From: Cellulomonas fimi
GTDB taxonomy: Bacteria > Actinomycetota > Actinomycetes > Actinomycetales > Cellulomonadaceae
Assembly (NCBI RefSeq): GCF_028583725.1
Contig: NZ_CP110680.1
Span: 2,170,001-2,234,000, forward strand
Direction of reading: 5' to 3'
DNA length: 64,000 nucleotides
Numbering within the stretch: position 1 is the first letter of the stretch; each line of letters starts with the position of its first letter. A program made the position numbers and the translations under genes. The notes below the pieces were generated by a model. The model saw nothing but the letters and a program-made list of their open reading frames with translations, was not told the origin of the DNA and searched no databases. Below are positions 24,851-62,431 of the stretch, piece by piece.

Positions 24851-24878
24851 TTGACACCTCCGCTGATCTCGGTAGGTT
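24851..24878 (+). promoter_or_regulatory. Strong vegetative-type promoter (TTGACA-16-TAGGTT)
   Basis: A perfect -35 TTGACA is separated by 16 nt from a TAGGTT -10. It is the closest match to the sigma-70 consensus found in the window. Transcription would start near 24885, well upstream of the separate lnt promoter. Confidence 0.65.
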
Positions 24879-24884
24879 CCTGAG

Positions 24885-25104
24885 GGTATTCGTGACCGGG
24901 GGGGACCGGTCGGGCGACACCGTCGAGAGGCCGACGCAGCGGTCGGCGGCAGGCGGACCCCGACGAGGCCCGGTGAACGGATCCCAGGGCTCCGACCGGG
25001 CCCGCGTGTTCAACAGACAACGGTCGGCGCCGCGCGCGCCCTCCGGTACGAAGGACACGCGGGCCGGTCGGTAGGGGAGCGGGACCACACCTCCCGACGG
25101 CCTT
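24885..25104 (+). ncRNA. Candidate non-coding RNA (about 220 nt) between amidohydrolase and lnt
   Basis: The stretch from the predicted start of the strong promoter to a hairpin near 25062-25102 holds no convincing reading frame. The 3' hairpin pairs ggccg with cggcc, then tcgg with ccga after one bulge, then agg with cct, and could be a terminator. Internal hairpins are also possible (ccgac/gtcgg near 24931-24946, cccgg/ccggg near 24969-25000). No known RNA family (tmRNA, RNase P, SRP, 6C) was recognised. An alternative is a long untranslated leader for lnt, but lnt has its own -10 box 28 nt further on. Confidence 0.4.
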
Positions 25105-25119
25105 CACACGCCGCTGTCG

Positions 25120-25125
25120 TACCCT
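25120..25125 (+). promoter_or_regulatory. -10 element (TACCCT) of lnt
   Basis: TACCCT ends 6 nt before the lnt GTG with no Shine-Dalgarno sequence, consistent with a leaderless mRNA. Confidence 0.45.
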
Positions 25126-25131
25126 TGCGCG

Positions 25132-48219: not shown

Positions 48220-48277
48220 CCAGCCCGTTTGCCGGCGACAACCGGCGTCCGGCCGGTAACGAATGGGTAACGCGAGT

Positions 48278-48297
48278 TGCTTAAACGATTTGCCCCA
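48278..48297 (+). promoter_or_regulatory. LacI-type operator upstream of cbhA (TAAACGATT core)
   Basis: The element tgcttaaacgatttgccccat contains AAACGATT, which fits the AAnCGnTT core of LacI-family and cre operators. Fourteen bases (TAAACGATTYGCCC) are shared with the element before the GH74 gene. It lies about 120 nt before the cbhA start, and a gtaacg repeat (48256 and 48267) lies just upstream of it. Confidence 0.6.
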
Positions 48298-48418
48298 TGC
48301 CGTCCCGATCACCCTGCGTGCTGAGGTAGCCGCCAGTCGCCGTGGACTCCCCCCGGGCGACTCGCGCCCGAGCGGGACGGACCGCTTCGGGTGTGCCGAT
48401 CGACACCCGGAGGACCAC

Positions 48419-51022
48419 GTGTCCACACACGGCAAGCGAGCGACGGTGAGGCGGCGGCTACGTGCCGCAGCGACCGTCGCCACGGCGACGGCACTCGCCG
48501 CCGTCCCCCTCACGACCCTGGCGACGAGCGCGAGCGCGGCGCCGACCCACGTCGACAACCCCTACTCGGGCGCGGTGCAGTACGTGAACCCCACGTGGTC
48601 CGCCTCGGTCACCGCCGCTGCCGGCCGGCAGAGCGCCGACCCGACGCTCGCCGCGAAGATGCGGACGGTCGCTGGACAGCCCACCGCCGTCTGGATGGAC
48701 CGGATCTCCGCGATCACCGGCAACGCCGACGGCAACGGCCTGAAGTTCCACCTGGACAACGCCGTCGCGCAGCAGCAGGCCGCGGGCAAGCCGCTCGTCT
48801 TCAACCTCGTCATCTACGACCTGCCCGGCCGCGACTGCTTCGCGCTCGCGTCCAACGGCGAGCTCCCGGCCACCGACGCCGGCCTCGCGCGGTACAAGAC
48901 CGAGTACATCGACCCGATCGCGGACCTGCTCGACAACCCGGAGTACGAGAACATCCGGATCGCCGCGACGATCGAGCCCGACTCGCTGCCGAACCTGGTG
49001 ACGAACATCTCGGAGCCCGCCTGCCAGCAGGCCGCGCCGTACTACCGCCAGGGCGTCAAGTACGCGCTCGACAAGCTGCACGCGATCCCGAACGTCTACA
49101 ACTACATCGACATCGGCCACTCCGGCTGGCTCGGCTGGGACAGCAACGCGGGCCCGTCCGCGACGCTGTTCGCCGAGGTCGCCAAGACGACGACCGCAGG
49201 CTTCGCGTCGATCGACGGCTTCGTCTCCGACGTCGCGAACACGACGCCGCTCGAGGAGCCGCTGCTCACCGACTCGTCGCTCACGATCAACAACAACCCG
49301 ATCCGGTCGTCGAAGTTCTACGAGTGGAACTTCGACTTCGACGAGATCGACTACACCGCGCACATGCACCGGCTCCTGGTCGCGGCGGGCTTCCCGTCGA
49401 CGATCGGCATGCTCATCGACACGTCGCGCAACGGCTGGGGCGGCCCGAACCGTCCGACGACCCTCACCGCGGCCACCGACGTCAACGCGTACGTCGACGC
49501 CAACCGGGTCGACCGTCGTGCGCACCGCGGCGCGTGGTGCAACCCGCTGGGCGCGGGCATCGGCCGCTTCCCGGAGGCGTCGCCCTCGGGCTACGCCTCG
49601 TCGCACCTCGACGCGTTCGTCTGGATCAAGCCCCCGGGTGAGTCCGACGGTGCGTCGACCGAGATCCCGAACGACCAGGGCAAGCGGTTCGACCGCATGT
49701 GCGACCCGACGTTCGTCTCGCCGAAGCTGAACAACCAGCTCACCGGCGCCACCCCGAACGCGCCGCTCGCCGGCCAGTGGTTCGAGGAGCAGTTCGTCAC
49801 GCTCGTCAAGAACGCGTACCCGGTCATCGGCCAGACGGACCCGGGCAACGACACCCAGGCGCCGACGGCCCCGACGGGCCTGACCGCCGGCACGACGACG
49901 TCGACCTCGGTCCCGCTGTCGTGGACCGCGTCGACCGACAACGTCGCCGTCACGGGCTACGACGTGTACCGCGGCACGACGCTCGTGGGCACGTCCACCA
50001 CCACGAGCTACACGGTCACGGGCCTCACGCCCGCCACGGCGTACTCGTTCACGGTCCGCGCCAAGGACGCGGCGGGCAACGTCTCGTCGGCGTCGGCCGC
50101 GGTCGCCGCGACCACGCAGTCCGGCACCGTCACCGACACGCAGGCGCCCTCGGTGCCGTCGGGTCTGACCGCCGGCACGACGACCACCACGTCGGTCCCG
50201 CTGTCGTGGACCGCCTCGACCGACAACGTCGGCGTCGCGGGCTACGAGATCCTGCGCGGCTCGACCGTCGTCGGCACGTCCACCACGACGAGCTACACGG
50301 TCACCGGCCTCACCGCCGGCACCACGTACTCGTTCTCGGTGCGCGCCAAGGACGCCGCGGGCAACACGTCCGCCGCCTCCACCGCGGTCTCCGCGACGAC
50401 GAAGACGGACACCGTGGTCGACACGCAGGCGCCCACCGCGCCGACGGGTCTGGCCGCGGGCGCCGCTACCAGCACGACGATCCCGCTGACGTGGGCCGCG
50501 TCGACCGACAACGTCGGCGTCACGGGCTACGACGTGTACAGCGGCACGACGCTCCTCGGCACGACCGCCACGACGAGCTACACGGCGTCCGGCCTCACCG
50601 CCGGCACCACGTACTCGTTCACGGTCAAGGCGAAGGACGCCGCGGGCAACGTCTCGACGTCGTCGGCGGCCCTGTCGGCCTCGACGCTGCCGAGCAACCC
50701 GACCGGCGGCTGCACCGTGAAGTACACGGCCAGCTCGTGGAACAACGGCTTCACCGCCTCCGTCCGCGTGACGAACGACAGCTCCAGCGCCCTCAACGGC
50801 TGGACGCTCGGGTTCTCGTTCGCGAACGGCCAGAAGGTGACGCAGGGCTGGAGCGCCGACTGGTCCCAGTCGGGCTCGGCCGTGACGGCCAAGAACGCGG
50901 CGTGGAACACCACGCTCGCCGCGAAGTCCTCGGTCGACATCGGCTTCAACGGCTCGCACAGCGGCACGAACAACGCGCCGACGGCCTTCACGCTGAACGG
51001 CGTGACCTGCACCGTCGCGTGA
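48419..51022 (+). CDS. cbhA: Secreted exo-1,4-beta-cellobiohydrolase, GH6-fnIII x3-CBM2 (CbhA/Cel6B)
   Basis: An 867-residue secreted cellulase, nearly the same length and arrangement as C. fimi CbhA (872). Residues 1-41 are a long signal peptide (basic RRRLRAAATV region, ASAA cleavage). GH6 spans about 42-475, with VIYDLPGRDCFALAS carrying the general-acid Asp, ATIEPDSLPN, DTSRNGWGG and WIKPPGESDG with the second catalytic-site Asp. Three fibronectin III domains start near 478, 574 and 667, each at a DTQAP(T/S) hinge. A CBM2 (CTVKYTASSWNNGFTASVRV) begins near 762 and binds crystalline cellulose. GTG start with a ggagga site; LacI-type operator upstream. Confidence 0.96.
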   Translation: MSTHGKRATVRRRLRAAATVATATALAAVPLTTLATSASAAPTHVDNPYSGAVQYVNPTWSASVTAAAGRQSADPTLAAKMRTVAGQPTAVWMDRISAITGNADGNGLKFHLDNAVAQQQAAGKPLVFNLVIYDLPGRDCFALASNGELPATDAGLARYKTEYIDPIADLLDNPEYENIRIAATIEPDSLPNLVTNISEPACQQAAPYYRQGVKYALDKLHAIPNVYNYIDIGHSGWLGWDSNAGPSATLFAEVAKTTTAGFASIDGFVSDVANTTPLEEPLLTDSSLTINNNPIRSSKFYEWNFDFDEIDYTAHMHRLLVAAGFPSTIGMLIDTSRNGWGGPNRPTTLTAATDVNAYVDANRVDRRAHRGAWCNPLGAGIGRFPEASPSGYASSHLDAFVWIKPPGESDGASTEIPNDQGKRFDRMCDPTFVSPKLNNQLTGATPNAPLAGQWFEEQFVTLVKNAYPVIGQTDPGNDTQAPTAPTGLTAGTTTSTSVPLSWTASTDNVAVTGYDVYRGTTLVGTSTTTSYTVTGLTPATAYSFTVRAKDAAGNVSSASAAVAATTQSGTVTDTQAPSVPSGLTAGTTTTTSVPLSWTASTDNVGVAGYEILRGSTVVGTSTTTSYTVTGLTAGTTYSFSVRAKDAAGNTSAASTAVSATTKTDTVVDTQAPTAPTGLAAGAATSTTIPLTWAASTDNVGVTGYDVYSGTTLLGTTATTSYTASGLTAGTTYSFTVKAKDAAGNVSTSSAALSASTLPSNPTGGCTVKYTASSWNNGFTASVRVTNDSSSALNGWTLGFSFANGQKVTQGWSADWSQSGSAVTAKNAAWNTTLAAKSSVDIGFNGSHSGTNNAPTAFTLNGVTCTVA

Positions 51023-51050
51023 CCTGACGTGCTCGCACTGACCGCATGAC

Positions 51051-51090
51051 GGGCGGGGGTCCTCCGGAAAGTCCCGGAGGACCCCCGCCC
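51051..51090 (+). terminator. Strong terminator between cbhA and cenD
   Basis: gggcgggggtcctccgg and ccggaggacccccgccc pair perfectly (17 bp) around a 6-nt loop, 28 nt after the cbhA stop. It implies separate or attenuated transcription of cenD. Confidence 0.9.
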
Positions 51091-51170
51091 CGCGTGCCCA
51101 CCCGGCTGCACCACCGGGGACGCCCGACCGGGCCCACCGGCCGGGACGGCAACGACCCGAGGAGAACCAC

Positions 51171-53399
51171 GTGCACTCCCCCCTCCGTACCCGCGTGCGC
51201 GCGGCGGTCACGGGCCTGCTGGCCGCGACCGCGCTGACCGCGCCGCTCGCCCTGGTGGCCGCACCCGCGCAGGCCGCGGCCGGCGACGACTGGCTCCACG
51301 TCCAGGGCAACACGATCGTCGACGCGTCCGGGAAGGAGGTCGTGCTCTCCGGCGTGAACTGGTTCGGCTTCAACGCGAGCGAGCGCGTCTTCCACGGGCT
51401 GTGGTCGGGCAACATCACCGAGATCACGAAGCAGATGGCCGACCGCGGCATCAACACGGTCCGCGTGCCGATCTCGACGCAGCTGCTGCTCGAGTGGAAG
51501 GCCGGCACGTTCCTCAAGCCGAACGTCAACACCTACGCGAACCCCGAGCTCGAGGGCAAGAACAGCCTGCAGATCTTCGAGTACTTCCTCACGCTGTGCC
51601 AGAAGTACGGGATCAAGGTGTTCCTCGACGTGCACTCGGCCGAGGCCGACAACTCCGGGCACGTCTACAACATGTGGTGGAAGGGCTCGATCACGACGGA
51701 GGACGTCTACGCCGGGTGGGAGTGGGCGGCGACGCGCTGGAAGAACGACGACACCATCATCGGCGCCGACATCAAGAACGAGCCGCACGGCACCCAGGGC
51801 TCGACCGAGCGCGCGAAGTGGGACGGCACGACCGACAAGGACAACTTCAAGCACTTCGCCGAGACGGCGTCGAAGAAGATCCTCGCGATCAACCCGAACT
51901 GGCTCGTGTTCGTCGAGGGTGTCGAGATCTACCCCAAGGAGGGCGTCTCGTGGACGTCCACCGGGCTCACCGACTACTACGGCACGTGGTGGGGCGGGAA
52001 CCTGCGGGGCGTGCGTGACTTCCCGATCGACCTCGGTGCGCACCAGGACCAGCTCGTGTACTCGCCGCACGACTACGGGCCGCTCGTGTTCGACCAGAAG
52101 TGGTTCCAGAAGGACTTCGACAAGGCGTCGCTGACGGCCGACGTGTGGGGCCCGAACTGGCTGTTCATCCACGACGAGGACATCGCGCCGCTGCTGATCG
52201 GCGAGTGGGGCGGCCGGCTCGGCCAGGACCCGCGGCAGGACAAGTGGATGGCCGCGCTGCGTGACCTCATCGCCGAGCGGAAGCTCAGCCAGACGTTCTG
52301 GGTGCTCAACCCGAACTCGGGTGACACGGGTGGCCTGCTGCTCGACGACTGGAAGACGTGGGACGAGGTCAAGTACTCGACCATGCTCAAGCCGACGCTG
52401 TTCCAGCACGGCGGCAAGTTCGTGGGCCTGGACCACGAGGTGCCGCTCGGCGGCGTGGGGTCGACCACCGGGATCTCGATCTCGCAGGTGGGCGGCGGCA
52501 CGTCCGACACGACGGCGCCCAGCGTCCCGAGCGGCGTGCGGGCGGGTACGCCGACGGCGTCGTCGGTCCCGCTGTCGTGGACGGCGTCGACGGACACCGG
52601 CGGCTCCGGGCTGGCCGGCTACGAGGTGTACCGCGGCTCGACGCTCGTCGGGACGACGACCTCGACGTCGTACACGGTCACCGGGCTGACCGCCGACACC
52701 GCGTACTCGTTCTCGGTGCGCGCCAAGGACGGCGCCGGCAACGTGTCGGCGGCGTCGACCGCGGTCTCGGTGCGCACGGGGGCCGGGACGGGTGACACGA
52801 CCGCGCCGAGCGTGCCGGTGGGCCTCGCGGCAGGCACGGTCACGACGACGTCGATCCCGCTGACGTGGACCGCGTCGACGGACACCGGCGGCTCGGGCGT
52901 CGCGGGCTACGACGTCTACCGCGGGACGACGCTCGTCGGGTCGACGACGACCCCGTCGTACACCGTGTCGGGTCTGACCGCGGGCACGTCCTACTCGTTC
53001 ACCGTCCGGGCGAAGGACGGCGCCGGCAACGTCTCGGCCGCGTCGTCCGCGCTCACGGCGTCGACCGCTCCGGACGTCGCGACGGGCTCGTGCTCGGTCG
53101 CCTACACCCCGAACGGCTGGAGCACGGGCTTCACCGCCGCGGTCAAGGTGACGAACACCGGCACGACCGCGCTCAACGGCTGGACGCTCGCGTTCGACCT
53201 GCCCGCGGGGCAGGCCCTCACGCAGGGCTGGAGCGCCACGTGGGCGCAGAGCGGCGCGAAGGTCACGGCGACCAACGCGGCGTGGAACGGCGTCCTCGCG
53301 CCCGGCGCGAGCGTCGAGATCGGGTTCAGCGGCACGCACACCGGCTCGTACGCCGCACCGACCGCGTTCACGGTCAACGGGGCGAGCTGCACCCGCTGA
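51171..53399 (+). CDS. cenD: Secreted endo-1,4-beta-glucanase, GH5-fnIII x2-CBM2 (CenD/Cel5A)
   Basis: A 742-residue secreted endoglucanase matching C. fimi CenD (747) in module order. Signal peptide about 1-36 (RTRVRAAVTGLLAATALTAP, AQA cleavage). GH5 spans about 37-440: VNWFGFNASE, acid/base Glu in IKNEPHGTQ near residue 203 and nucleophile Glu in LLIGEWGGRLG near 345. Fibronectin III domains begin near 445 and 541 (DTTAPSVP), and CBM2 at about 638 (CSVAYTPNGWSTGFTAAVKV). GTG start with an aggaga site. No LacI-type operator was found in its 148-nt upstream gap, which contains the cbhA terminator. Confidence 0.95.
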   Translation: MHSPLRTRVRAAVTGLLAATALTAPLALVAAPAQAAAGDDWLHVQGNTIVDASGKEVVLSGVNWFGFNASERVFHGLWSGNITEITKQMADRGINTVRVPISTQLLLEWKAGTFLKPNVNTYANPELEGKNSLQIFEYFLTLCQKYGIKVFLDVHSAEADNSGHVYNMWWKGSITTEDVYAGWEWAATRWKNDDTIIGADIKNEPHGTQGSTERAKWDGTTDKDNFKHFAETASKKILAINPNWLVFVEGVEIYPKEGVSWTSTGLTDYYGTWWGGNLRGVRDFPIDLGAHQDQLVYSPHDYGPLVFDQKWFQKDFDKASLTADVWGPNWLFIHDEDIAPLLIGEWGGRLGQDPRQDKWMAALRDLIAERKLSQTFWVLNPNSGDTGGLLLDDWKTWDEVKYSTMLKPTLFQHGGKFVGLDHEVPLGGVGSTTGISISQVGGGTSDTTAPSVPSGVRAGTPTASSVPLSWTASTDTGGSGLAGYEVYRGSTLVGTTTSTSYTVTGLTADTAYSFSVRAKDGAGNVSAASTAVSVRTGAGTGDTTAPSVPVGLAAGTVTTTSIPLTWTASTDTGGSGVAGYDVYRGTTLVGSTTTPSYTVSGLTAGTSYSFTVRAKDGAGNVSAASSALTASTAPDVATGSCSVAYTPNGWSTGFTAAVKVTNTGTTALNGWTLAFDLPAGQALTQGWSATWAQSGAKVTATNAAWNGVLAPGASVEIGFSGTHTGSYAAPTAFTVNGASCTR

Positions 53400-53445
53400 C
53401 CTCTCCGGTGGGTGCGTCGGACGTGGAGGCCGGCGCACCCACCCC

Positions 53446-53486
53446 CGGCGCCGGTGGGACGGGCAGACCCCGTGCCACCGGCGCCG
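53446..53486 (+). terminator. Bidirectional terminator after cenD
   Basis: cggcgccggtgg and ccaccggcgccg pair perfectly (12 bp), with an inner acggg/cccgt pairing extending the stem. It lies between cenD and the convergent aldolase-like gene. Confidence 0.8.
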
Positions 53487-53491
53487 TCGTG

Positions 53492-54550
53492 TCAGACCTG
53501 CGCGTCGAGCAGCCGGCGCAGCTCGGCGAGGAACGCGTCGACGTCGGCCTCGGTCGTGTCGAACGCGCACATGAGCCGCACCTCACCGCTGTCCGGGTGC
53601 CAGTCGTAGAACTTCCACGTGCGCCGCAGCTCCGCGGACACCGCGTGCGGGAGCGTCACGAACACGCCGTTGGCCTGCGTCGGCAGCATCACGTGCACGC
53701 GGTCGCCGAGCGCGTCGAGCCCGGCGCGCAGGCGGGCCGCCATCGCGTTCGCGTGCTGCGCGGACCGCAGCCACAGGTCGCCCTCGAACATCGCGACGAG
53801 CTGCGCCGACACGAACCGCATCTTCGAGGCGAGCTGCATGTTCATCTTGCGCAGGTACGGCAGCCCGTCCGCGGCGGCCTCGTCGAGGACGACGACGGCC
53901 TCCCCGAACAGCAGGCCGTTCTTGGTGCCGCCGAGCGACACCACGTCGACGCCGACGTCGGTCGTGAACGCGCGCAGCGGCAGGCCGAGCGCCGCGGCCG
54001 CGTTCGCGATCCGCGCCCCGTCGACGTGCAGCCGCAGGCCGAGCCCGTGCGCCTGGTCGGCCAGCGCGCGGATCTCGTCGGGCGTGTAGAGCGTGCCGAG
54101 CTCGGTGCTCTGCGTGATCGACACGACGCCGGGCTGCGCGCGGTGCTCGTCGCCGAAGCCCCACGCCTGCCGCGCCACCAGGTCGGGCGTGAGCTTGCCG
54201 TCGGGCGTCGGGACGGTGAGGAGCTTGAGGCCGCCGACGCGCTCCGGCGCGCCGTTCTCGTCCGTCTGGATGTGCGCGGACTCGGCGCACACGACCGCAC
54301 CCCAGCGCGGGAGGAGCGCCTGCAGCGAGAGCACGTTCGCGCCGGTCCCGTTGAACACCGGGTACGTCGTCGCGCCGTCGCCGAAGTGCGCGGCCACGAC
54401 CTCCTGGAGCCGTGCCGTGTACGCGTCCGCGCCGTACGCGGTCTGGTGGCCGCCGTTCGCGTCGACGAGCGCGGCGAGGACCTCGGGGTGCGCGCCCGCG
54501 TAGTTGTCGGACGCGAAGTCGCGGTGGTCGGCGTCGTGGAGTCGTGTCAC
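53492..54550 (-). CDS. ltaE: Threonine aldolase-like PLP enzyme (beta-eliminating lyase family)
   Basis: A 352-residue fold-type I PLP enzyme. It shows FASDNYAGAHPEVLAAL, YGADAYTARLQEVVAAHFG, PVFNGTGANVLSL, ITQSTELGTLYTPDEI, LHVDGARIANAAAALG (PLP-binding Asp) and the Schiff-base Lys in DVVSLGGTKNGLLFGEAVV near residue 203. Low-specificity threonine aldolases cleave threonine to glycine and acetaldehyde; some relatives act on other beta-hydroxy amino acids. GTG start after a gggggag site; length is normal. Confidence 0.88.
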   Translation of the reverse strand: MTRLHDADHRDFASDNYAGAHPEVLAALVDANGGHQTAYGADAYTARLQEVVAAHFGDGATTYPVFNGTGANVLSLQALLPRWGAVVCAESAHIQTDENGAPERVGGLKLLTVPTPDGKLTPDLVARQAWGFGDEHRAQPGVVSITQSTELGTLYTPDEIRALADQAHGLGLRLHVDGARIANAAAALGLPLRAFTTDVGVDVVSLGGTKNGLLFGEAVVVLDEAAADGLPYLRKMNMQLASKMRFVSAQLVAMFEGDLWLRSAQHANAMAARLRAGLDALGDRVHVMLPTQANGVFVTLPHAVSAELRRTWKFYDWHPDSGEVRLMCAFDTTEADVDAFLAELRRLLDAQV

Positions 54551-54651
54551 TCCCCCAGTCTCCCCTGCGCCGACAGATGCCCTGGACACCTGCCCTGCGC
54601 TCCACCCGCGCCTGCGGCATGATCCGTGCGACACGACGAGAAGGAGGCATC

Positions 54652-55137
54652 GTGCCCCCGCAGGACCAGCTGCACGACGAGGATCGCAACGAGACGTTCA
54701 CGGAGCGGATGGACCGGAACTGGAACGAGCTCCTGCAGGAGCTGCGCGTGACCCAGACCGGCACGCAGATCCTCACGGGCTTCCTGTTCACGATCCCGTT
54801 CCAGCAGCGGTTCGGGGACCTCGACGCCTACCAGAAGGACCTGTACCTCGTCCTCGTCGTGCTCGCGGTGCTCGCGACGGCGCTCATCGTGGCGCCCGTG
54901 AGCCTGCACCGGGTGCTGTTCCGCAAGCGGCTCAAGCCCGAGCTCGTCGCGGCCGCGAACATCTTCGCGCGGCTCGGGCTCGTCGTCCTCGGCCTCGTGC
55001 TCGCCGGCGCAGCCATGCTGCTGTTCGACGTCGTGCTCGGGCGTCAGGCGGGGTGGGTCGTCGGTGGCGTCTCGCTCGCCGTGCTCGCCGCGGCGTGGTG
55101 GCTGGTGCCGCACCTCATCCGGCGCGCCGCGGACTGA
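54652..55137 (+). CDS. DUF6328-type membrane protein
   Basis: A 161-residue protein with four predicted membrane helices after a hydrophilic N-terminus (DRNETFTERMDRNWNELLQELRVTQTGTQILTGFLFTIPFQQRF, over about 10-55), the conserved start of the DUF6328 family common in actinobacteria. Function unknown. GTG start preceded by aaggagg. It is convergent with zur, with 16 nt between stops. Confidence 0.8.
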   Translation: MPPQDQLHDEDRNETFTERMDRNWNELLQELRVTQTGTQILTGFLFTIPFQQRFGDLDAYQKDLYLVLVVLAVLATALIVAPVSLHRVLFRKRLKPELVAAANIFARLGLVVLGLVLAGAAMLLFDVVLGRQAGWVVGGVSLAVLAAAWWLVPHLIRRAAD

Positions 55138-55153
55138 GTCCCGCGCGCGACGG

Positions 55154-55555
55154 TCACGTCGCGGCGGCCGCGCGGCACGTCGCGCACGTGCCGACGAGCT
55201 CGATGGTGTGGTCCACGTCCGCGAACCCGTGCGCGGCGGCGACCTGGGCCGCCCACGCCTCGGCCTGCGCGGCGTCGATCTCGACCGTGCGCCCGCACGA
55301 CCGGCACACGAGGTGGTGGTGGTGCGTGCGCTGCTCGCAGCGCCGGTACACCGACTCGCCGTCCTCGGTGCGCAGCACGTCGACCTCGCCCGTCTCCGTC
55401 AGGCTCTGCACCGCGCGGTAGACGGTCGCGAGCCCGACGGACGAGCCGCGCGAGCGCAGCAGCTCGTGCAGCTGCTGGGCGCTGCGGAACTCGTCCAGGC
55501 CCTCGAGCAGGTCGAGGATCTCGGCGCGCTGCCGCGTCTGCCGTACCACCGCCAT
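55154..55555 (-). CDS. zur: Fur-family zinc uptake regulator (Zur)
   Basis: A 133-residue Fur-family repressor: winged helix (RQTRQRAEILDLLEGLDEFRSAQQLHELL, SVGLATVYRAVQSL), metal-site histidines in RTHHHHLVCRSCGRTVEID, and two CxxC pairs (CRSC and CATC) for structural zinc. The pattern matches actinobacterial Zur/FurB rather than FurA. Zur represses zinc import genes when zinc is sufficient. No znu genes are in the window. The ATG at 55555 has an aaggag site; an ATG 18 nt upstream is possible. Confidence 0.88.
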   Translation of the reverse strand: MAVVRQTRQRAEILDLLEGLDEFRSAQQLHELLRSRGSSVGLATVYRAVQSLTETGEVDVLRTEDGESVYRRCEQRTHHHHLVCRSCGRTVEIDAAQAEAWAAQVAAAHGFADVDHTIELVGTCATCRAAAAT

Positions 55556-55609
55556 CACGTGCCGCTCCTTCATGAGACTCGTTCGCATGATAGTCGACGC
55601 GTACGCGAC

Positions 55610-55645
55610 AGGGCCGGGCCCGACCCGACGGTCGGACCCGGCCCT
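55610..55645 (-). terminator. Terminator of the HU gene
   Basis: Two 16-nt arms (agggccgggcccgacc and ggtcggacccggccct) pair with a single mismatch around a CGAC loop, 11 nt after the HU stop. Confidence 0.85.
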
Positions 55646-55655
55646 GAGTCGGGTG

Positions 55656-55937
55656 TCAGCCCTGGACGGCGCGCTTGAGGGCGCTGCCCGCCGTGAGCTT
55701 CACGCGGTAGCCCGCGGGGATCTCGAGCTTCTCGCCCGTCTGCGGGTTGATGCCCGTGCGGGCCGAGCGCTCGGCGCGCGCGACGGCGAGGAAGCCGGGG
55801 ATCGTCACGGACTCCCCAGCGGCGAGCTGCTCCACGAGGACCTCCTGGAAGGCCTTGAGGACCTTGTCGGCCTCGGCGTTGGCGGTGCCCGCCTTCGCGG
55901 CCACGGCCTGGACGAGCTCGGTGCGGTTGACGCTCAC
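55656..55937 (-). CDS. hup: HU-family DNA-binding protein
   Basis: A 93-residue nucleoid protein of the HU/IHF fold: NRTELVQAVAAKAGTANAEADKVLKAFQEVLVEQLAAGESVTIPGF as the dimer core over residues 3-48, then the DNA-binding arm (ERSARTGINPQTGEKLEIPAG) and a short C-terminus. It lacks the long basic tail of mycobacterial HupB, so it is the short type. GTG start after aaggag. It carries its own terminator. Confidence 0.95.
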   Translation of the reverse strand: MSVNRTELVQAVAAKAGTANAEADKVLKAFQEVLVEQLAAGESVTIPGFLAVARAERSARTGINPQTGEKLEIPAGYRVKLTAGSALKRAVQG

Positions 55938-56081
55938 GAGATGTGTGCTCCTTGTTGACTCGGTTCGTGCGGACCCTGGACGGGCCTGGACCCGTCGGGC
56001 GCGCGGCGACACCGCGTGACCGGGGGCTGCGCAGACCCTAACGCGTCCACCCGACCGTTCCCGCACGACCGAGCGGGCGTG

Positions 56082-57116
56082 TCAGCGGTGCGACCGCTCA
56101 CGCAGGCGCTCGACGGGCCACGTCGTGATCACGCGCTCCGGGTCGATCGCGTGCTGCGCCGCCCGCTCGCAACCGGCCGTCAGCCAGTCGAGCTGGCCCG
56201 GCGCGTGCGCGTCCGTGTCGATGCTGAACAGGCAGCCGACCTCGACCGCGACCGCCAGCAGGTCGTGCGGCGGGTCGAGCCGGTCCGGCCGGCAGTTGAT
56301 CTCGACCGCCACGCCGTGCGCCGCGCACTCCTCGAACACCCGGCGCGCGTCGAACTCGCTCTGCGGCCGCTGCCGGCCCGTCAGGCGGCGTCCCGTGCAG
56401 TGGCCGAGCACGTCCGTGCGCGGGTCGCGCACCGCCGCGACCATCCGCTCCGTCATGGCCCGCGAGTCCATCCGCAGCTTCGAGTGCACCGACGCGACCA
56501 CCACGTCGAGCTCGTCGAGCAGGTCCGGGTCCTGGTCCAGCGCGCCGTCGTCGAGGATGTCGCACTCGATGCCCGTCAGCACCGTGAACGGGGCGACCGC
56601 ACGGTTGAGCGCCGCGACCTGCTGCAGCTGCGCGCGCAGGCGCGGCGCCGACAGGCCGTTCGCGACCGTCAGCCGCGGCGAGTGGTCCGTGATCGCGAGG
56701 TACTCGTGCCCCAGGTCGAGCGCCGCCAGCACCATCTCCTGGATCGGCGTCTTCCCGTCGCTCGCCTCGCTGTGCGCGTGCAGGTCGCCGCGCAGCCGCG
56801 CCCGCAGCGCCGCGACCGCCGGGTCGGGCGGGTCCGCCGCGGCCGCCTCGGCCTCCAACCGGTCCAGGTACTCGACGGGCTTCCCCCGCACCACGAGCGA
56901 CACGACCTCCGCCGTGCGCGCCCCGACCGACGGCAGGTCCGTCAGCGCGCCCGCCTTCGCGAGCGCCACCACCCGGTCCGCGGGGGTCCGCTCCACCGAC
57001 GTCGCCGCCGCCCGGAACGCCTCGCTCCGGTACCCGCTCGCCTGCGCCCGCTCCAGCAGGAACGCGATCCGGCGCAGCGCCGCGACCGCGTCGTCCCGCA
57101 GTCCCGCAGCCGTCAC
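56082..57116 (-). CDS. PHP-domain protein, PolX C-terminal half-like, in a DNA-repair cluster
   Basis: A 344-residue protein. The N-terminus is a helix-hairpin-helix region (AVAALRRIAFLLERAQASGYRSEAFRAAA, ALTDLPSVGARTAEVV). The C-terminus is a PHP phosphoesterase with its metal motifs: GDLHAHSEASDG near residue 109, YLAITDHSPRL, LTGIECDIL, VVASVHSKL, LGHCTGRRLTGR, VEINCRPDRLDPP and SIDTDAHAP. This is bacterial PolX without the nucleotidyltransferase domain. PHP domains of PolX are 3'-5' nucleases. Its GTG overlaps the ku stop, suggesting a joint role in end-joining repair. Confidence 0.85.
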   Translation of the reverse strand: MTAAGLRDDAVAALRRIAFLLERAQASGYRSEAFRAAATSVERTPADRVVALAKAGALTDLPSVGARTAEVVSLVVRGKPVEYLDRLEAEAAAADPPDPAVAALRARLRGDLHAHSEASDGKTPIQEMVLAALDLGHEYLAITDHSPRLTVANGLSAPRLRAQLQQVAALNRAVAPFTVLTGIECDILDDGALDQDPDLLDELDVVVASVHSKLRMDSRAMTERMVAAVRDPRTDVLGHCTGRRLTGRQRPQSEFDARRVFEECAAHGVAVEINCRPDRLDPPHDLLAVAVEVGCLFSIDTDAHAPGQLDWLTAGCERAAQHAIDPERVITTWPVERLRERSHR

Positions 57117-58255
57117 GACGCCTTGCGGCGCGTCCGACGCGGCGTCGGCTCGTCGCCCTCGGCGTCCGACGACGCGCGCTTCGCCGCAGGCTTCGCCTTC
57201 GTGCCGCTCGACGTCTTCGCACCGCTCGCCTTCGAGCCGCCGGACGCCTTCGCGCTGCCGGACGCCTTCGCGCCGCCGGACGCCTTCGCGCTGCTCGACG
57301 CCGACGACTTCGTGCCCGAGGACCGCGACGAGCTCGACCGCGAGCCGCTCGACCGCGTGGCCCCGCCGCCCGACGCGTCGTCGTCACCCTCGTCGACGTC
57401 ATCCGTCCCCGTGCGCGCCCGCGACCGCGGCTTCTCCTGCGCCGCCGGCTCCTCGGCACCGCCACGCGTGCCGCGCGCCTTCTCCACGCTGCGCTGCAGC
57501 GCCGCCAGCAGGTCGACGACCTCGCCGCCGCCGCTCTCCCCCTCCTCGCCCGCCGGGGCGGGGACCGCACGCGTGTCGCCCGTCTGGATCTTCGTCTCGA
57601 TCAACGTCTCGAGCGCCGCCGAGTACCGGTCCTCGTACTGCGACGGGTCGAAGTCCGCCGCGAGCGAGTCCACCAGCGACGCCGCCATCGCCAGCTCCTG
57701 CGGCTTGACCGCCACGTCCGCGTCGAGGATCGGGAAGTCCGCCGCCCGCACCTCGTCGGGCCACAGCAGGATCTGCATGCAGATCACGTTGTCCCGCACC
57801 CGCAGCACCGCCATCGACTCGCGCTGCCGGATCGCGACCTTCACGACCGCCATCCGGTCCGCCTGCTCGAGCGCACCGCGCAGCAGCGCGTACGGCTTCG
57901 CCGCCGTCTTCTCCGGCTCCAGGTAGTACGTCTTGCCCAGCAGGATCGGGTCCACCTGCTCGGCCGGGACGAACTCCATGACCTCGATCTCGCGCTCCGT
58001 CGACAACGGCAACCGCGAGAAGTCCTCGTCCGTCAGCACCACGAGCTCGCCGTCGTCCGTCTCGAACCCCTTGGCGATCTCCCGGTACTCGACCTCCTCG
58101 CCGTCGATGCTGCACACCTTGCGGTAGCGGATCCGCCCGCCGTCGGCCTTGTGCACCTGGTGCAGCGTCACCTCGTGCTCACCCGTGGCCGCGTACAGCC
58201 GCACGGGCACGTTGACCAGCCCGAAGGCGACCGCACCCTTCCAGATCGCTCGCAT
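57113..58255 (-). CDS. ku: Non-homologous end-joining protein Ku
   Basis: A 380-residue Ku homodimer subunit that binds DNA ends and recruits LigD. It starts MRAIWKGAVAFGLVNVPVRLY and carries YRKVCSIDGEEVEYREIAKGFE, PLSTEREIEVMEFVPAEQVDPI, GKTYYLEPEKTAAKPYALL and the C-terminal part of the core (FDPSQYEDRYSAALETLI near 210). From about 270 on there is a long Lys/Ser/Ala/Gly-rich tail with a repeated KASG unit, ending RRTRRKAS; such basic tails bind DNA in other actinobacteria. It is divergent from the ligase gene and upstream of the PHP gene. Confidence 0.95.
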   Translation of the reverse strand: MRAIWKGAVAFGLVNVPVRLYAATGEHEVTLHQVHKADGGRIRYRKVCSIDGEEVEYREIAKGFETDDGELVVLTDEDFSRLPLSTEREIEVMEFVPAEQVDPILLGKTYYLEPEKTAAKPYALLRGALEQADRMAVVKVAIRQRESMAVLRVRDNVICMQILLWPDEVRAADFPILDADVAVKPQELAMAASLVDSLAADFDPSQYEDRYSAALETLIETKIQTGDTRAVPAPAGEEGESGGGEVVDLLAALQRSVEKARGTRGGAEEPAAQEKPRSRARTGTDDVDEGDDDASGGGATRSSGSRSSSSRSSGTKSSASSSAKASGGAKASGSAKASGGSKASGAKTSSGTKAKPAAKRASSDAEGDEPTPRRTRRKAS

Positions 58256-58336
58256 CGTCGACCACCTCCGTCGGTTCGGCGGCACCGCCTGCCGGGCACG
58301 CCCCGGCGAGCCCGCGACGGACGCGGACCACCTGGG

Positions 58337-58342
58337 CAGGAT
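58337..58342 (+). promoter_or_regulatory. -10-like element (CAGGAT) of the ligase gene
   Basis: CAGGAT ends 6 nt before the GTG at 58349 in the 93-nt divergent space shared with ku. It is a weaker match (C for T), with no ribosome site. Confidence 0.35.
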
Positions 58343-58348
58343 GGACCC

Positions 58349-59284
58349 GTGGAGCCCATGCTCGCCACCCCAGCAGCCCGGACGGGCGCACTGCCGCGCG
58401 GACCGCAGTGGGCCTTCGAGGTGAAGTGGGACGGCGTCCGGGCGCTCGCGGACACCAGGACCGGTGACCTGCGGATGTGGAGCCGCGGCGGCCGCGAGGT
58501 CACGCCCGCGTACCCCGAGCTCGCGGGTCTGGCCGCGCTGCCCGACACCGTGCTGGACGGCGAGGTGGTCCTGCTGGCCGACGGCCGGCCGTCGTTCGCG
58601 GCGCTCGCGGAGCGCATGCACGTGCGCGACGCCCGCCGCGCCGCCGCCCTCGCACGGTCCCGCCCCGTCACGTTCCTCGTGTTCGACGTGCTGCGCCTCG
58701 GTGGCACCGACGTCACGGCGCGCACGTACGACGAGCGCCGTGCGCTGCTCGACGGTCTGCCGCTGCCCGACCGGGTCCAGCTGTCGCCGGTCTACCCGGA
58801 CGGCGACGAGCTGTGGGCCGTCACCGCCGAGCACGGGCTCGAGGGCGTCGTCGCCAAGCGGCGGTCCTCGGTGTACCGCGCAGGCGTCCGCTCGGCCGAC
58901 TGGGTGAAGTCCGCGCACCAGCACCACCGCACGGCGCTCGTCGCGGGCTGGCGGGAGGAGACGTCGGGCAACGGGCGGCTGGGCGCGGTGCTGCTCGGCG
59001 CGCACGACGCGGACGGCCGGCTGCGCTACCTGGGCCGCGCGGGCAGCGGGCTGACGGGCGCGCTCGCGACGGCGCTCCAGCGCTCGGTCGCCGCGCAGCC
59101 GCTCGACGCGTGCCCCTTCGACGACGAGGTGCCACCGCTCGACGCGCGCGGCACGCGCTGGTGCGCGCCGGTCGTCGTGGTCGACGCGCGCTACCTCAAC
59201 CGCACCCCGACCGGGCGGCTGCGTCAGCCCGTCGTCCGGGGCGTGCGGACGGACACCGACCCCGACCCCTGGGAGCAGCAGTGA
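58349..59284 (+). CDS. ligD: ATP-dependent DNA ligase, LigD ligase-domain type
   Basis: A 311-residue stand-alone ligase. The adenylation Lys is in FEVKWDGVRAL near residue 29, followed by DTVLDGEVVLL (motif III), VFDVLRLGG, EGVVAKRRSSVYRAGVRSADWVKSA (motifs IV-V) and an OB-fold C-terminus (LRYLGRAGSGLT, CAPVVVVDARYLNRTPTGRLRQPV). In mycobacteria this domain is part of the single LigD protein; here it is separate from the polymerase and no 3'-phosphoesterase domain is present. GTG start; the stop overlaps the polymerase gene. Confidence 0.92.
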   Translation: MEPMLATPAARTGALPRGPQWAFEVKWDGVRALADTRTGDLRMWSRGGREVTPAYPELAGLAALPDTVLDGEVVLLADGRPSFAALAERMHVRDARRAAALARSRPVTFLVFDVLRLGGTDVTARTYDERRALLDGLPLPDRVQLSPVYPDGDELWAVTAEHGLEGVVAKRRSSVYRAGVRSADWVKSAHQHHRTALVAGWREETSGNGRLGAVLLGAHDADGRLRYLGRAGSGLTGALATALQRSVAAQPLDACPFDDEVPPLDARGTRWCAPVVVVDARYLNRTPTGRLRQPVVRGVRTDTDPDPWEQQ

Positions 59285-60162
59285 CGCCGGAGCGGCAGAT
59301 GGTCGAGGTGGACGGGCGGCAGGTCCGTGTCACGCACCTCGAGAAGGTCATGTACCCCGAGACGGGCACGACCAAGGCGGAGGTCATGCACTACCTCCTG
59401 CGCGTCGCGCCCGCCCTGCTGCCGCAGCTCCGCGAGCGGCCCGTGACGCGGATCCGCTGGCCCGACGGCGTCGGGGGCGAGAAGTTCTTCGAGAAGAACG
59501 TGCCGCGTGGTGCACCCGAGTGGCTCCGCCGGCAGACGCTGCCCGCGGCGCCGAACAACGACGACGACGAGGGCACGATGCTCGAGCTGCCGTTCGTCGA
59601 CGACCTCGCCGGGCTCGTGTGGTGCGCGAACCAGGGCGCGCTCGAGCTGCACACGCCGCAGTGGACGGTCGGACCGCGCGGGGGCGTCCGCCACCCGGAC
59701 CGGCTCGTGATCGACCTCGACCCCGGCGCGCCGGCGGGCCTGGACGAGTGTGCGCGCGTGGCGCACCTCGTCGCGGACCGGCTGCGCGAGGACGGGCTCG
59801 ACGAGACCGTCCCGGTGACGTCGGGCAGCAAGGGCATGCAGCTCTACGCGCGACTGCCCGGACGGCGGACCGCGCCCGTGGTCCGGCAGTACGCGCGGGA
59901 CCTCGCGTTCGCGGTCGCGAAGCAGCACCCGTCGCTCGTCGTCGCCGTCATGCGCAAGGACGTGCGCGGCGGCAAGGTGCTCATCGACTGGTCGCAGAAC
60001 CACCCGGCGAAGACGACGATCACGCCCTACTCGCTGCGCGGCCGCGACGTGCCGCGCGTGGCGGCGCCGCGGTGGTGGGACGAGATCGGACCGGGGCTGG
60101 CGCAGCTCGGTCCCGACGAGGTCGCGGACCGGCTCGAGCGCGACGGCGACCCGTTCGACTGA
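59281..60162 (+). CDS. LigD-type primase-polymerase (NHEJ polymerase domain)
   Basis: A 293-residue archaeo-eukaryotic primase-fold polymerase. It has VTHLEKVMYPETGTTKAEVMHYL, RPVTRIRWPDGVGGEKFFEKNVP, the DxD metal pair in LVIDLDPG near residue 145, VTSGSKGMQLY and the C-terminal DWSQNHPAKTTITPYSLRGRD. It corresponds to the polymerase part of LigD, filling gaps during Ku-dependent end joining. GTG overlaps the ligase stop by 4 nt, indicating coupled synthesis of two pieces that are fused elsewhere. Confidence 0.92.
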   Translation: MTPERQMVEVDGRQVRVTHLEKVMYPETGTTKAEVMHYLLRVAPALLPQLRERPVTRIRWPDGVGGEKFFEKNVPRGAPEWLRRQTLPAAPNNDDDEGTMLELPFVDDLAGLVWCANQGALELHTPQWTVGPRGGVRHPDRLVIDLDPGAPAGLDECARVAHLVADRLREDGLDETVPVTSGSKGMQLYARLPGRRTAPVVRQYARDLAFAVAKQHPSLVVAVMRKDVRGGKVLIDWSQNHPAKTTITPYSLRGRDVPRVAAPRWWDEIGPGLAQLGPDEVADRLERDGDPFD

Positions 60163-60261
60163 CCGCCCGCTCCGCTGGCGAGCGACCCTCGTGTGGGGCA
60201 GCGTGGACGCACGCCCGGGCAGGTCTCGCCCCGGTTCACGAGCTGAAGGAGGAGCCCCCTC

Positions 60262-60835
60262 ATGGCACGCACGCTGCCGAAGTACACCGTCCCGTCGCTC
60301 ACGCCGCAGGACGGCGCGAAGGTCGCCGAGATCCTCCAGCAGCGGCTCAACGCGCTCAACGACCTCGCGCTGACGCTCAAGCACATCCACTGGAACGTCG
60401 TCGGCCCGCACTTCATCGCGGTGCACGAGATGATCGACCCGCAGGTCGACGCGGTGCGCCTCATGGTCGACGCGATCGCCGAGCGCATCGCGACCCTCGG
60501 CGTCGCGCCGGTCGGCACGCCCGGTGCGCTGGTGAAGGCGCGCACGTGGGACGACTACGCCATCGGGCGGGACAGCGCGATCGCGCACCTCGGCGCGCTC
60601 GACGAGGTCTACGTCGGCGTCATCACGGACCACCGCCAGGCGGCGAAGGACACCGAGGAGCTCGACGACGTCACGAACGACCTGCTCATCGGCCACCTGC
60701 ACGAGCTCGAGCCTGTTCCACTGGTTCGTGCGCGCGCACCTCGAGTCGGCCGGCGGTGCCCTGAGCACGTCCTCGGCGGACGGCGAGAAGGCGTCCGCCG
60801 ACGCCGCCCGGGCGAAGGACAAGGCATCGGCGTGA
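60262..60835 (+). pseudogene. dps: Dps-family ferritin-like protein, one-base frameshift near the C-terminus
   Basis: The product would be a 190-residue Dps protecting DNA and storing iron. NALNDLALTLKHIHWNVVGPHFIAVHEMIDPQVD carries the ferroxidase His and acidic residues (35-70), and the core continues to IGHLHELE near residue 150. After 60711 an extra C shifts the frame. Dropping one C restores LFHWFVRAHLESAGG and an Ala/Lys-rich tail ending at TGA 60833-60835. The coding pattern beyond is intact, so this is a recent lesion, a sequencing error, or, less likely, programmed slippage. The ATG has a gaaggaggag site. Confidence 0.75.
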
Positions 60836-60840
60836 GCGCA

Positions 60841-60882
60841 GGCACGGAGCACCGGGCGGTCGGTCGCGCGGTGCTCCGTGCC
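60841..60882 (+). terminator. Terminator after dps
   Basis: ggcacggagcaccg and cggtgctccgtgcc pair perfectly (14 bp) around a 14-nt loop, 5 nt after the restored dps stop. It separates dps from the next gene although one frame runs through both. Confidence 0.85.
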
Positions 60883-60939
60883 GCACGACCGGGCAGCCGC
60901 ACGACGGGGTCCGCGCAGCCCCCGAGCCCGACCCGCCGC

Positions 60940-62001
60940 ATGCACGTCGCCGCGCGCCTCGAGGACTCGTTCGACCGGGCCGTGGCCGGGGTGCTGGCAC
61001 GCCGGGGCTGGACGGTCCGCATCGAGGCGTTCGCGGGGTACGGGGCGCCCGGGTGGGTGCGCGTCATGGCGCGGACGCTGCTCGCCCCGCCCCAGGTGCG
61101 GGCGTCGGACCTGCCGGGCGCGGGCGCCGAGGCGCACGTCGAGGCACGCCCCGCCGCCCCCGTGCGCGGGTGGCGGTCGTTCGCGACCGCCGAGGTCGCG
61201 GGTGCGCCGCTGCGCGTGCGCGTCGGGGACCGCGAGCACGAGGTCGTCACGGATCGCGGCGGCTACCTGGACGTCGTGCTCGACGCGGACCTGTCCCCCG
61301 GTTGGCACCACGTGACCCTCACGTCGCAGGACGGTGCGACCGCGCAGGCGCCCGTGATGGTCGTCGACCCCGCGGTCCGCGTGGGTCTAGTCAGCGACAT
61401 CGACGACACCGTGATGGTGACCCGCCTGCCACGTCCGCTGGTCGCGGCCTGGAACGTGCTCGTCCGGCACGAGAACGCCCGCGAGCCCGTGCCGGGCATG
61501 AACGCCCTCTACGCGGAGCTGCGGCAGCGCAATCCGGGGATGCCGGTCGTCTACCTGTCGACGGGGGCGTGGAACGCCGCGCCGGCGATCGCGCGGTTCC
61601 TGCGGCGGCACGGGTACCCGCCGGGACCCCTGCTGCTCACGGACTGGGGGCCCACGAACACCGGCTGGTTCCGCTCCGGCCGGGCGCACAAGGTCGCGCG
61701 GCTGCGGCGCCTGTTCCGCGAGCTGCCCGACGTCCGCTGGGTGCTCGTGGGCGACGACGGCCAGCGGGACCCGGAGATCTACGCCGGCGCGGCCGAGCAC
61801 CACCCCGACCACGTCGAGGCGATCCTGCTGCGGCAGCTGACGTTCAGCGAGCACGTGCTCGCCCACGGGCTCCCCGCGCCGACGCCGGAGCAGCGCACCG
61901 CGGAGCGGGCGGCGGAGAACGAGGGCATCCCGGTCCTGCAGGGCGCGGACGGGTATGCGCTGCGGCAGGCGGTGCACTCCGAGGCGCGGCTGGCGCGCTG
62001 A
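60940..62001 (+). CDS. App1-family (DUF2183) phosphatase
   Basis: A 353-residue protein of the App1/DUF2183 family, relatives of phosphatidate phosphatase with a HAD-like catalytic core. It shows HVAARLEDSFDRAVAGVLARRGW at the start, then a beta-sandwich N-terminal domain, LVSDIDDTVMVTRLP near residue 151 (DxDxT nucleophile), MPVVYLSTGAWNAAPAI, LLTDWGPTNTGWFRSG and WVLVGDDGQRDPEIY. The ATG is preferred because family proteins begin here and a terminator lies upstream; the frame continues unbroken back into dps only because of the dps frameshift. Confidence 0.82.
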   Translation: MHVAARLEDSFDRAVAGVLARRGWTVRIEAFAGYGAPGWVRVMARTLLAPPQVRASDLPGAGAEAHVEARPAAPVRGWRSFATAEVAGAPLRVRVGDREHEVVTDRGGYLDVVLDADLSPGWHHVTLTSQDGATAQAPVMVVDPAVRVGLVSDIDDTVMVTRLPRPLVAAWNVLVRHENAREPVPGMNALYAELRQRNPGMPVVYLSTGAWNAAPAIARFLRRHGYPPGPLLLTDWGPTNTGWFRSGRAHKVARLRRLFRELPDVRWVLVGDDGQRDPEIYAGAAEHHPDHVEAILLRQLTFSEHVLAHGLPAPTPEQRTAERAAENEGIPVLQGADGYALRQAVHSEARLAR

Positions 62002-62017
62002 CAGGAGCGGGACGCTC

Positions 62018-62061
62018 GACGGCCCGCGCTCCCGTCCGTCACGGCGGAGGCGCGGGCCGTC
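62018..62061 (+). terminator. Bidirectional terminator
   Basis: gacggcccgcgc and gcgcgggccgtc pair perfectly (12 bp) around a 20-nt loop, between the App1-like gene and the convergent small gene. Confidence 0.75.
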
Positions 62062-62067
62062 GGCGCG

Positions 62068-62274
62068 TCACAGGCGCTGGGGGTCGTCCCAGTCCTCGCT
62101 GCTCGCGATCGCCTCGTCGTCGGCCTCGAGCTCGACCGCGTGCAGCGACCGCGGTGCCCGGCTCGGGTCCCCGCCCGACCGTGCGTCGGCGGCGGCGAGC
62201 TCGGCCTCGGGCAGGGTGGGCTCGGCGAGGTGCTCGGCGGCGGGGTCGGACGTCAGGTCGCGGTCGCGGCTCAT
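62068..62274 (-). CDS. Small acidic hypothetical protein (68 residues)
   Basis: A hydrophilic, acidic protein (SRDRDLTSDPAAEHLAEPTL, then Ala/Asp-rich, ending SSEDWDDPQRL) with ATG start and consistent G/C third positions. No domain, cysteine or membrane segment. It is convergent with the App1-like gene and divergent from the GH74 gene. No family was recognised. Confidence 0.55.
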   Translation of the reverse strand: MSRDRDLTSDPAAEHLAEPTLPEAELAAADARSGGDPSRAPRSLHAVELEADDEAIASSEDWDDPQRL

Positions 62275-62380
62275 GGGAGGTTTCTACCGCCACGTCCGCC
62301 CGGGTGCACCCGCGGACCAGCCCGTGACCCGGTCAACGCCACCCGTCGGACAGCGGTCCAGGACGCGGCGGTGCGCCGTC

Positions 62381-62400
62381 AGGGCTAAACGATTCGCCCT
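62381..62400 (+). promoter_or_regulatory. LacI-type operator upstream of the GH74 gene
   Basis: agggctaaacgattcgccct is a near-perfect 20-bp palindrome (AGGGC-N-AA-N-CG-N-TT-N-GCCCT) centred on CG, the classical LacI-family layout. It shares TAAACGATT(C/T)GCCC with the element before cbhA. It lies just upstream of the predicted promoter. Confidence 0.7.
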
Positions 62401-62411
62401 CTCACCGGCAT

Positions 62412-62431
62412 TCGAAGCGCTTCGATACCGT
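62412..62431 (+). promoter_or_regulatory. Second palindromic operator and -10 of the GH74 gene
   Basis: tcgaagcgcttcga (62412-62425) is a perfect 14-bp palindrome with the AGCGCT centre seen in CelR-type operators of other actinobacteria. It directly abuts a TACCGT -10 box (62426-62431), so a bound repressor would block RNA polymerase. The transcript would have a leader of about 105 nt. Confidence 0.6.

What the first reader, a model, noticed from the sequence alone, without database searches (positions are those of the whole stretch)
48278..62431. Shared LacI-type operator suggests one regulon for cbhA and the distant GH74 gene
The promoters of cbhA (48278-48297) and the GH74 gene (62381-62400), 14 kb apart, share TAAACGATTYGCCC with the AAnCGnTT core of LacI-family operators. 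The GH74 copy is an almost complete 20-bp palindrome. No copy was found before cenD. The LacI gene next to cbhA is a natural candidate reader, but another LacI protein elsewhere could be responsible.
Basis: partly seen in the sequence, partly recalled or inferred. Interest (0 to 1): 0.75.

Follow-up and report, generated by a model that had tools for sequence, protein, structure and literature searches.

The report
Cellulase-regulon operator, known in sister species
The short DNA word shared by two cellulose-breaking genes is very probably a repressor binding site that also stands before dozens of other plant-cell-wall-degrading genes of this soil bacterium; a near-identical site was already reported in a sister species, and the neighbouring regulator gene is the best but unproven candidate reader.

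Summary
TAAACGATTYGCCC occurs exactly twice in the 4.49-Mb genome, before cbhA and GH74 (about 0.006 expected). The conserved unit is shorter, C(G/T)AAnCGnTT(C/A)G. A genome scan with CNAAWCGNTT gives 44 sites (58 hits; reversed control 1). None lies inside a called gene, and 29 of 44 stand before genes for glycoside hydrolases, polysaccharide lyases, LPMOs, esterases or CBM2 proteins. A second genome repeats this (19 of 31). So cbhA and GH74 belong to one large plant-polysaccharide regulon. The cbhA site fits the motif published for Cellulomonas flavigena (PMC3377646), so the motif is not new. The LacI gene beside cbhA is the best candidate reader: it precedes cbhA, with one operator between, in 30 of 30 loci read; 34 of 35 GH74-bearing genomes carry a relative; genomes without it have fewer sites, 1 of 52 loci read being at a glycoside hydrolase. 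Not proven: lifestyle confounds the test, the gene has no such site upstream, and other LacI genes carry similar operators. GH74 has a second operator, TCGAAGCGCTTCGA.

The parts
48281..48292 (+). cbhA operator core TTAAACGATTTG (central CG 48286-48287); minus-strand reading CAAATCGTTTAAGCA fits the published C. flavigena motif exactly
   Evidence: one AAnCGnTT between the LacI stop and the cbhA start in 22 of 22 named loci and 30 of 30 genome loci read
62385..62396 (+). GH74 operator 1, CTAAACGATTCG (central CG 62390-62391)
   Evidence: an AAnCGnTT site with A/T next to the CG on at least one side in this promoter in 29 of 35 GH74 orthologs
62412..62425 (.). GH74 operator 2, perfect palindrome TCGAAGCGCTTCGA, centre 28 bp downstream of operator 1
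   Evidence: TCGAAGCGCTTC present in 23 of 35 orthologs; at least one of the two operators in 34 of 35
47113..48219 (+). LacI-family regulator directly upstream of cbhA; best candidate reader
   Evidence: Pfam LacI HTH and Peripla_BP_3; relatives in 45 of 81 genus genomes; HTH nearly invariant
51171..53399 (+). cenD: GH5-fn3(2)-CBM2; no operator of its own, possibly read through from cbhA
62544..64000 (+).

Best explanation
The two sites are operators of one genus-wide regulon for plant-polysaccharide degradation in Cellulomonas. Its operator is about 12 bp, C(G/T)AAnCGnTT(C/A)G, centred on CG, and lies typically about 120-135 bp before start codons. A LacI-family dimer bound there most likely blocks transcription until a sugar ligand (inferred: a cello- or xylo-oligosaccharide) releases it, so that cellulases, xylanases, mannanase, pectinases, LPMOs and esterases are induced together. 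The most likely reader is the LacI encoded immediately upstream of cbhA. GH74 carries a second operator, TCGAAGCGCTTCGA, of the form found before another LacI gene (genome 3301874, beside a GH42 gene), so GH74 may answer to two repressors. Shown here: the sites, their conservation, their position and the genes behind them. Inferred: binding, repression, ligand, and which LacI.
For: Sites: 58 hits (44 distinct) for CNAAWCGNTT against 1 reversed; scrambled CNTTWCGNAA 2, its reversal 9. Position: 0 of 44 inside a called gene, 41 of 44 within 450 bp upstream of a start; the both-S relatives CKAASCGSTTNG (stricter flanks) are 11 of 15 inside genes (Fisher p 5e-9). Targets: 29 of 44 before carbohydrate-active or CBM genes (28; one is a GH9-CBM2 gene with a frameshift). 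Of 29 CBM2 proteins, 18 have a strict site and 5 more a looser AAnCGnTT upstream. Replicate genome G015: 19 of 31, none inside a called gene. Reader: LacI-operator-cbhA order in 30 of 30 loci read, out of 45 genomes with a relative; 34 of 35 GH74 genomes have a relative (six of them at 54-58% identity), the 35th a 94-residue piece at 97%; hits per genome 20-61 in 9 genomes with it versus 6-27 in 12 without (Mann-Whitney p 1.4e-4).
Against: No binding or expression data. The candidate LacI has no AAnCGnTT within about 400 bp upstream in any of 21 named loci where that stretch is held. Co-occurrence is confounded by lifestyle (35 of the 36 genomes without a relative of this LacI also lack GH74) and by shared ancestry; only this LacI was tested genus-wide. 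Nine other own LacI genes also lack reciprocal best hits in both G011 and G073. 15 of 44 sites are not at carbohydrate genes; some (MFS exporters, another LacI) are kept in genomes lacking the candidate, so more than one LacI probably reads this class. Chance hits exist: LacI-free G051 has 16 hits in 3.3 Mb. Two of the 44 own sites (1901395, 1901843) lie in a stretch where no gene was called. G036 has the candidate LacI but only 20 hits and no operator before GH74. No sigma-70-like promoter was found in either region, so overlap of operator and promoter is unproven. The cbhA site is a poor palindrome.
Confidence: 0.6

Rival explanations
1. The regulon is real, but its reader is another LacI, for example the 'VSxSTVSYxLSGKRxIS' regulator at genome 3301874 (beside GH42) or the one at 1137709 (beside an MFS gene); the LacI beside cbhA regulates something else.
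For: Both have the operator class before their own genes: TCGAAGCGCTTC and TCGAAGCGTTTAG before 3301874 (TCGAAGCGCTTCGA also in G011, a looser form in G073), two CGAATCGATT-type sites before 1137709, kept in G011 and G073. The second GH74 palindrome has the first form. Local LacI regulators are mostly autoregulated (PMC4052901, passages); the cbhA-side LacI shows no such site.
Against: G011 and G073 hold both of these LacI genes but no cbhA-side LacI; there and in eight further genomes without the cbhA-side LacI, of 52 loci read only 1 (a GH3 gene) is at a carbohydrate-active gene (mostly judged from N-termini, ten proteins by Pfam). How many such genes those genomes have was not counted.
Confidence: 0.3
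2. Several LacI proteins share overlapping operators, so that the 44 sites are a mixture of small regulons rather than one (compatible with either candidate reading a part).
For: 29 LacI HTH matches in this genome, several with AAnCGnTT upstream and different flanks; 15 of 44 sites are not at carbohydrate genes; the symmetric CGAATCGATTCG set before MFS genes is kept in genomes without the cbhA-side LacI.
Against: 29 sites at carbohydrate-active genes with a common C(G/T)AAnCGnTT core fit one reader for that subset.
Confidence: 0.4
3. The shared 14-mer is a chance or promoter-element similarity without a regulator.
For: TTYGCCC could be read as a weak -35; the cbhA site is a poor palindrome; at one mismatch the published motif is no commoner in the window than in shuffles (5 matches, mean 3.5).
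Against: Conserved core in 30 of 30 cbhA promoters read and at least one operator in 34 of 35 GH74 promoters; genome enrichment; no sigma-70-like promoter there.
Confidence: 0.03

Closest known systems
Putative cellulase regulatory site of Cellulomonas flavigena, CNAA(T/A)CGNTTANNNA / CNAA(T/A)CGNTTCNNNG (PMC3377646, sections 8 and 9 read)
   Same: Same core, same genus, same kind of targets (almost all cellulases and a GH10-GH62 gene); the cbhA minus-strand reading fits the first form exactly.
   Different: That text reports 15 sites in one genome and names no reader for this site. Here: 44 sites in another species, a wider target list, conservation across the genus, a candidate reader and a double operator at GH74.
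CelR/CebR regulon of Thermobifida fusca and Streptomyces (consensus TGGGAGCGCTCCCA, letters recalled)
   Same: LacI-family control of cellulase genes through a palindrome with a central CG.
   Different: Different half-site (TGGGA versus C(G/T)AAN). In the window TGGGAGCGCTCCCA has no match with fewer than 2 mismatches, none at cbhA or GH74 promoters, and no clear excess over shuffles (10 matches, mean 6.2). The whole genome was not scanned for it.
Global LacI-family regulators such as CcpA (PMC4052901, passages seen)
   Same: Even palindrome with central CG, sites mostly 30-140 bp upstream, many targets, reader not necessarily autoregulated.
   Different: Targets here are mostly secreted polysaccharide degraders, not central metabolism.

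Membership tests
LacI-family operator | Even palindrome with central CG pair | tested here: met
   GH74 operator 1: 16 of 20; operator 2: perfect 14-mer. cbhA only 8 of 20, so for cbhA alone it is weak. Rule from PMC4052901.
LacI-family operator | Located mostly 30-140 bp upstream of start codons | tested here: met
   Median 122 bp over 63 site-gene pairs, 135 bp over 29 carbohydrate-gene pairs copied by hand; several lie at 150-308.
LacI-family operator | Bound by a LacI-family protein | not testable with these tools
   Needs gel shift or footprinting.
C. flavigena cellulase motif | CNAAWCGNTT(A..A or C..G) | tested here: met
   cbhA exact; both GH74 operators 1 mismatch to a combined pattern, a level that shuffles also reach.
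C. flavigena cellulase motif | Upstream of most cellulases | tested here: met
   29 of 44 sites at carbohydrate-active genes; 23 of 29 CBM2 proteins with strict or loose site; not cenD.
CelR regulon | TGGGAGCGCTCCCA before the genes | tested here: not met
   (window only).
Single-reader regulon of the cbhA-side LacI | Reader and operators co-occur | tested here: inconclusive
   Strong association but confounded by lifestyle and ancestry.
Single-reader regulon of the cbhA-side LacI | Autoregulation through the same operator | tested here: not met
   0 of 21 loci have AAnCGnTT in about 400 bp upstream of the LacI gene (a 22nd locus lacks that stretch).

The most novel reading that the evidence does not exclude
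The LacI encoded next to cbhA is the master switch of the secreted plant-cell-wall-degrading system of Cellulomonas, gained or lost together with cellulolysis, not autoregulated, and integrated at GH74 with a second LacI through a 28-bp-spaced double operator; the LacI-like-sensor/PAS/GGDEF protein divergent from it would tie the same signal to c-di-GMP.
Probability: 0.35. Interest if true: 0.6.

Novelty: new member of a known kind. Interest (0 to 1): 0.42.

Why it matters
Cellulomonas fimi and its relatives are classical sources of cellulases and CBM2 tags (recalled), and PMC3377646 (sections 8, 9) named no reader for their cellulase motif. A target list for two genomes, conservation across the genus and one named candidate gene make that question testable with one gel shift and one deletion. 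The motif itself is not new.

Tried and rejected
The 14-mer as the operator: rejected, because the GCCC tail varies across orthologs and the exact 14-mer occurs at only 2 of the 44 own sites.

CelR-type operator: not clearly above chance in the window; genome not scanned.

AASCGSTT (both-S) palindromes as part of the regulon: 11 of 15 lie inside genes, so mostly background; exceptions are the second GH74 operator and sites at a GH3/lipoprotein pair, a CBM2 gene and 4223831.

An alternative box for the LacI reader: an imperfect palindrome GTGATCGTGGTCAC at the LacI start and GGTAACG direct repeats in the cbhA promoter are conserved, but no link between them could be shown; left open.

Sigma-70 consensus scans of both promoters: nothing.

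Literature: of searches the one paper I recognised as dealing with this motif is PMC3377646; most subscription journals are not held, so absence of a named reader in print is not established.

Weak points: the gene caller is home-made and start codons are approximate. One own LacI (L112) and one G011 LacI (L177) were wrongly extracted, so the orthology table lacks them. Neighbours counted as carbohydrate-active in the own genome and in G015 rest on Pfam (GH74 and cbhA orthologs), except the frameshifted GH9 (frames read, CBM2). Neighbours counted as not carbohydrate-active were partly judged from N-terminal sequence, and in genomes without the candidate LacI mostly so. The 52 loci read there are a part of all sites in those genomes, the both-strand ones preferred. 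The four genomes were chosen for small size; the sixteen by me; its listing was cut, so only per-genome counts are complete. Only 30 of 45 LacI loci were given. The hypergeometric figure for CBM2 assumes 3,900-4,100 genes and is not used.

On re-checking, searches were added to test by Pfam the seven hits that I had judged by eye; all seven held.
Full report
What was claimed and whether it is there. In the whole 4,486,221-base genome TAAACGATTYGCCC has 2 exact matches, none with one mismatch and 8 with two, against about 0.006 expected from base composition. In 81 genomes of the genus, own included, AAACGATTYGCCC gives 29 exact hits in 22 genomes and 0 for the reversed pattern. All 29 stand before carbohydrate-active or CBM genes: 18 cbhA and 4 GH74 orthologs and 7 others checked by Pfam.

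What is conserved. Alignment of 18 cbhA and 4 GH74 promoters, then reading of 22 named cbhA promoters, 30 LacI-cbhA loci and 35 GH74 promoters, shows that the AAnCGnTT core is kept while the GCCC tail drifts. The LacI-cbhA order with exactly one AAnCGnTT between them holds in 30 of 30 loci read; 15 further genomes with a relative were not read there, except G018 (54-58% class), which has the same order with CTAATCGATTCG. Of 35 GH74 promoters, 29 keep a W-type site, 23 keep TCGAAGCGCTTC, 18 have both and 1 (G036) has neither. In the window the second GH74 palindrome is 28 bp from the first, centre to centre.

Genome scan. None of the 44 lies inside a called gene; 41 lie within 450 bp upstream of a start, while called genes cover about 89% of the window. 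Two of the remaining three (1901395, 1901843) lie where no gene was called; the third precedes the GH9 gene named next. Where genes diverge, the carbohydrate gene is one of two neighbours. The other 15 include two MFS genes, a LacI/MFS pair with two sites, a sugar-binding protein beside a MatE gene, and genes without clear role. Of 29 CBM2 proteins (30 domain matches), 18 have a strict site (the broken GH9 included), 5 a looser one and 6 none, cenD among them. In G015 the scan gives 42 hits at 31 sites, of which 19 are at carbohydrate-active genes and none inside a called gene.

Published precedent. PMC3377646 (sections 8 and 9 read) found by MEME in C. [quoted passage not shown] The minus strand of the cbhA site, CAAATCGTTTAAGCA, fits the first form exactly. 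The motif is therefore known; the species, the wider target list, the conservation and the candidate reader are the additions.

Who reads it. The genome has 29 LacI-type HTH matches. The LacI beside cbhA has relatives in 45 of 81 genomes (six at 54-58% and one at 41% identity, the rest at 67% or more). GH74 is in 35 of 81; 34 of these carry the LacI relative, and the 35th (G034, 89% complete) has its last 94 residues at 97% identity at a contig end. Genomes with this LacI have 20-61 hits (9 genomes, two of them of the 54-58% class) and those without 6-27 (12 genomes), Mann-Whitney p 1.4e-4. In ten genomes without it that were read at part of their sites (G005, G009, G011, G012, G021, G037, G049, G057, G062, G073), of 52 loci 14 are inside genes and only 1 (GH3 in G011) is at a carbohydrate-active gene; others are MFS exporters, LacI genes, ABC proteins and unrelated genes. 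Two genomes with no LacI above cut-off (G051, G054) have 16 and 6 hits but no site matching on both strands. All this fits the cbhA-side LacI, but cellulolytic lifestyle would give the same picture, relatedness is not corrected for, carbohydrate genes were not counted in the genomes without it, and no other LacI was tested genus-wide. Against it, its own gene has no such site (0 of 21), and the LacI genes at 3301874 and 1137709 carry the operator class before themselves.

Mechanism. The most likely working is classical: dimer bound at the promoter, repression without substrate, release by an oligosaccharide from cellulose or xylan. Position, symmetry and targets are shown; repression, ligand and reader are inferred. 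GH74 probably integrates two repressors.

Verdict. Very probably a genus-wide CAZyme regulon of LacI type, ordinary in kind, whose motif was in print for a sister species; useful because it hands a testable candidate to a question left open there.

Noticed in passing
44346-47045 (-): Protein with a LacI-like ligand domain but no HTH, then PAS and GGDEF, divergent from the cbhA-side LacI; its first 63-89 residues are 86-99% identical across the orthologous loci, more than the LacI itself. Suggests a link between sugar sensing and c-di-GMP at the cellulase locus.
   Followed up: partly
48255-48272: Direct repeat GGTAACG-N4-GGTAACG just upstream of the cbhA operator; the proximal GGTAA is kept in 18 of 18 aligned promoters. 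Unknown factor.
   Followed up: partly
48333-48348: CCAGTCGCCGTGGACT in the cbhA leader is strongly conserved in the 18-promoter alignment; possibly around the transcription start.
   Followed up: no
47113-47126: DNA at the LacI start, GTGATCGTGGTCAC, is nearly invariant in 18 aligned sequences, although the following N-terminal linker varies; possible leaderless start or another operator.
   Followed up: partly
51051-51090: GC-rich inverted repeat between cbhA and cenD without a T-run, seen by eye in the sequence printed and not folded; may attenuate read-through into cenD.
   Followed up: no
genome G000:C1 about 23650-26900: GH9-CBM2 gene with an operator upstream has a broken reading frame near 26.3 kb; the relative in G015 is open over the stretch read. 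Sequencing error or real frameshift not decided.
   Followed up: partly
genome sites 1138004/1138036, 1706710, 3368466: CGAATCGATTCG-type operators before MFS transporters, one set beside a LacI gene, with counterparts in genomes without the cbhA-side LacI: probably a separate conserved small regulon.
   Followed up: partly
genome 4184652: One operator lies between a GGDEF gene and an LPMO10-CBM2 gene transcribed away from it.
   Followed up: no
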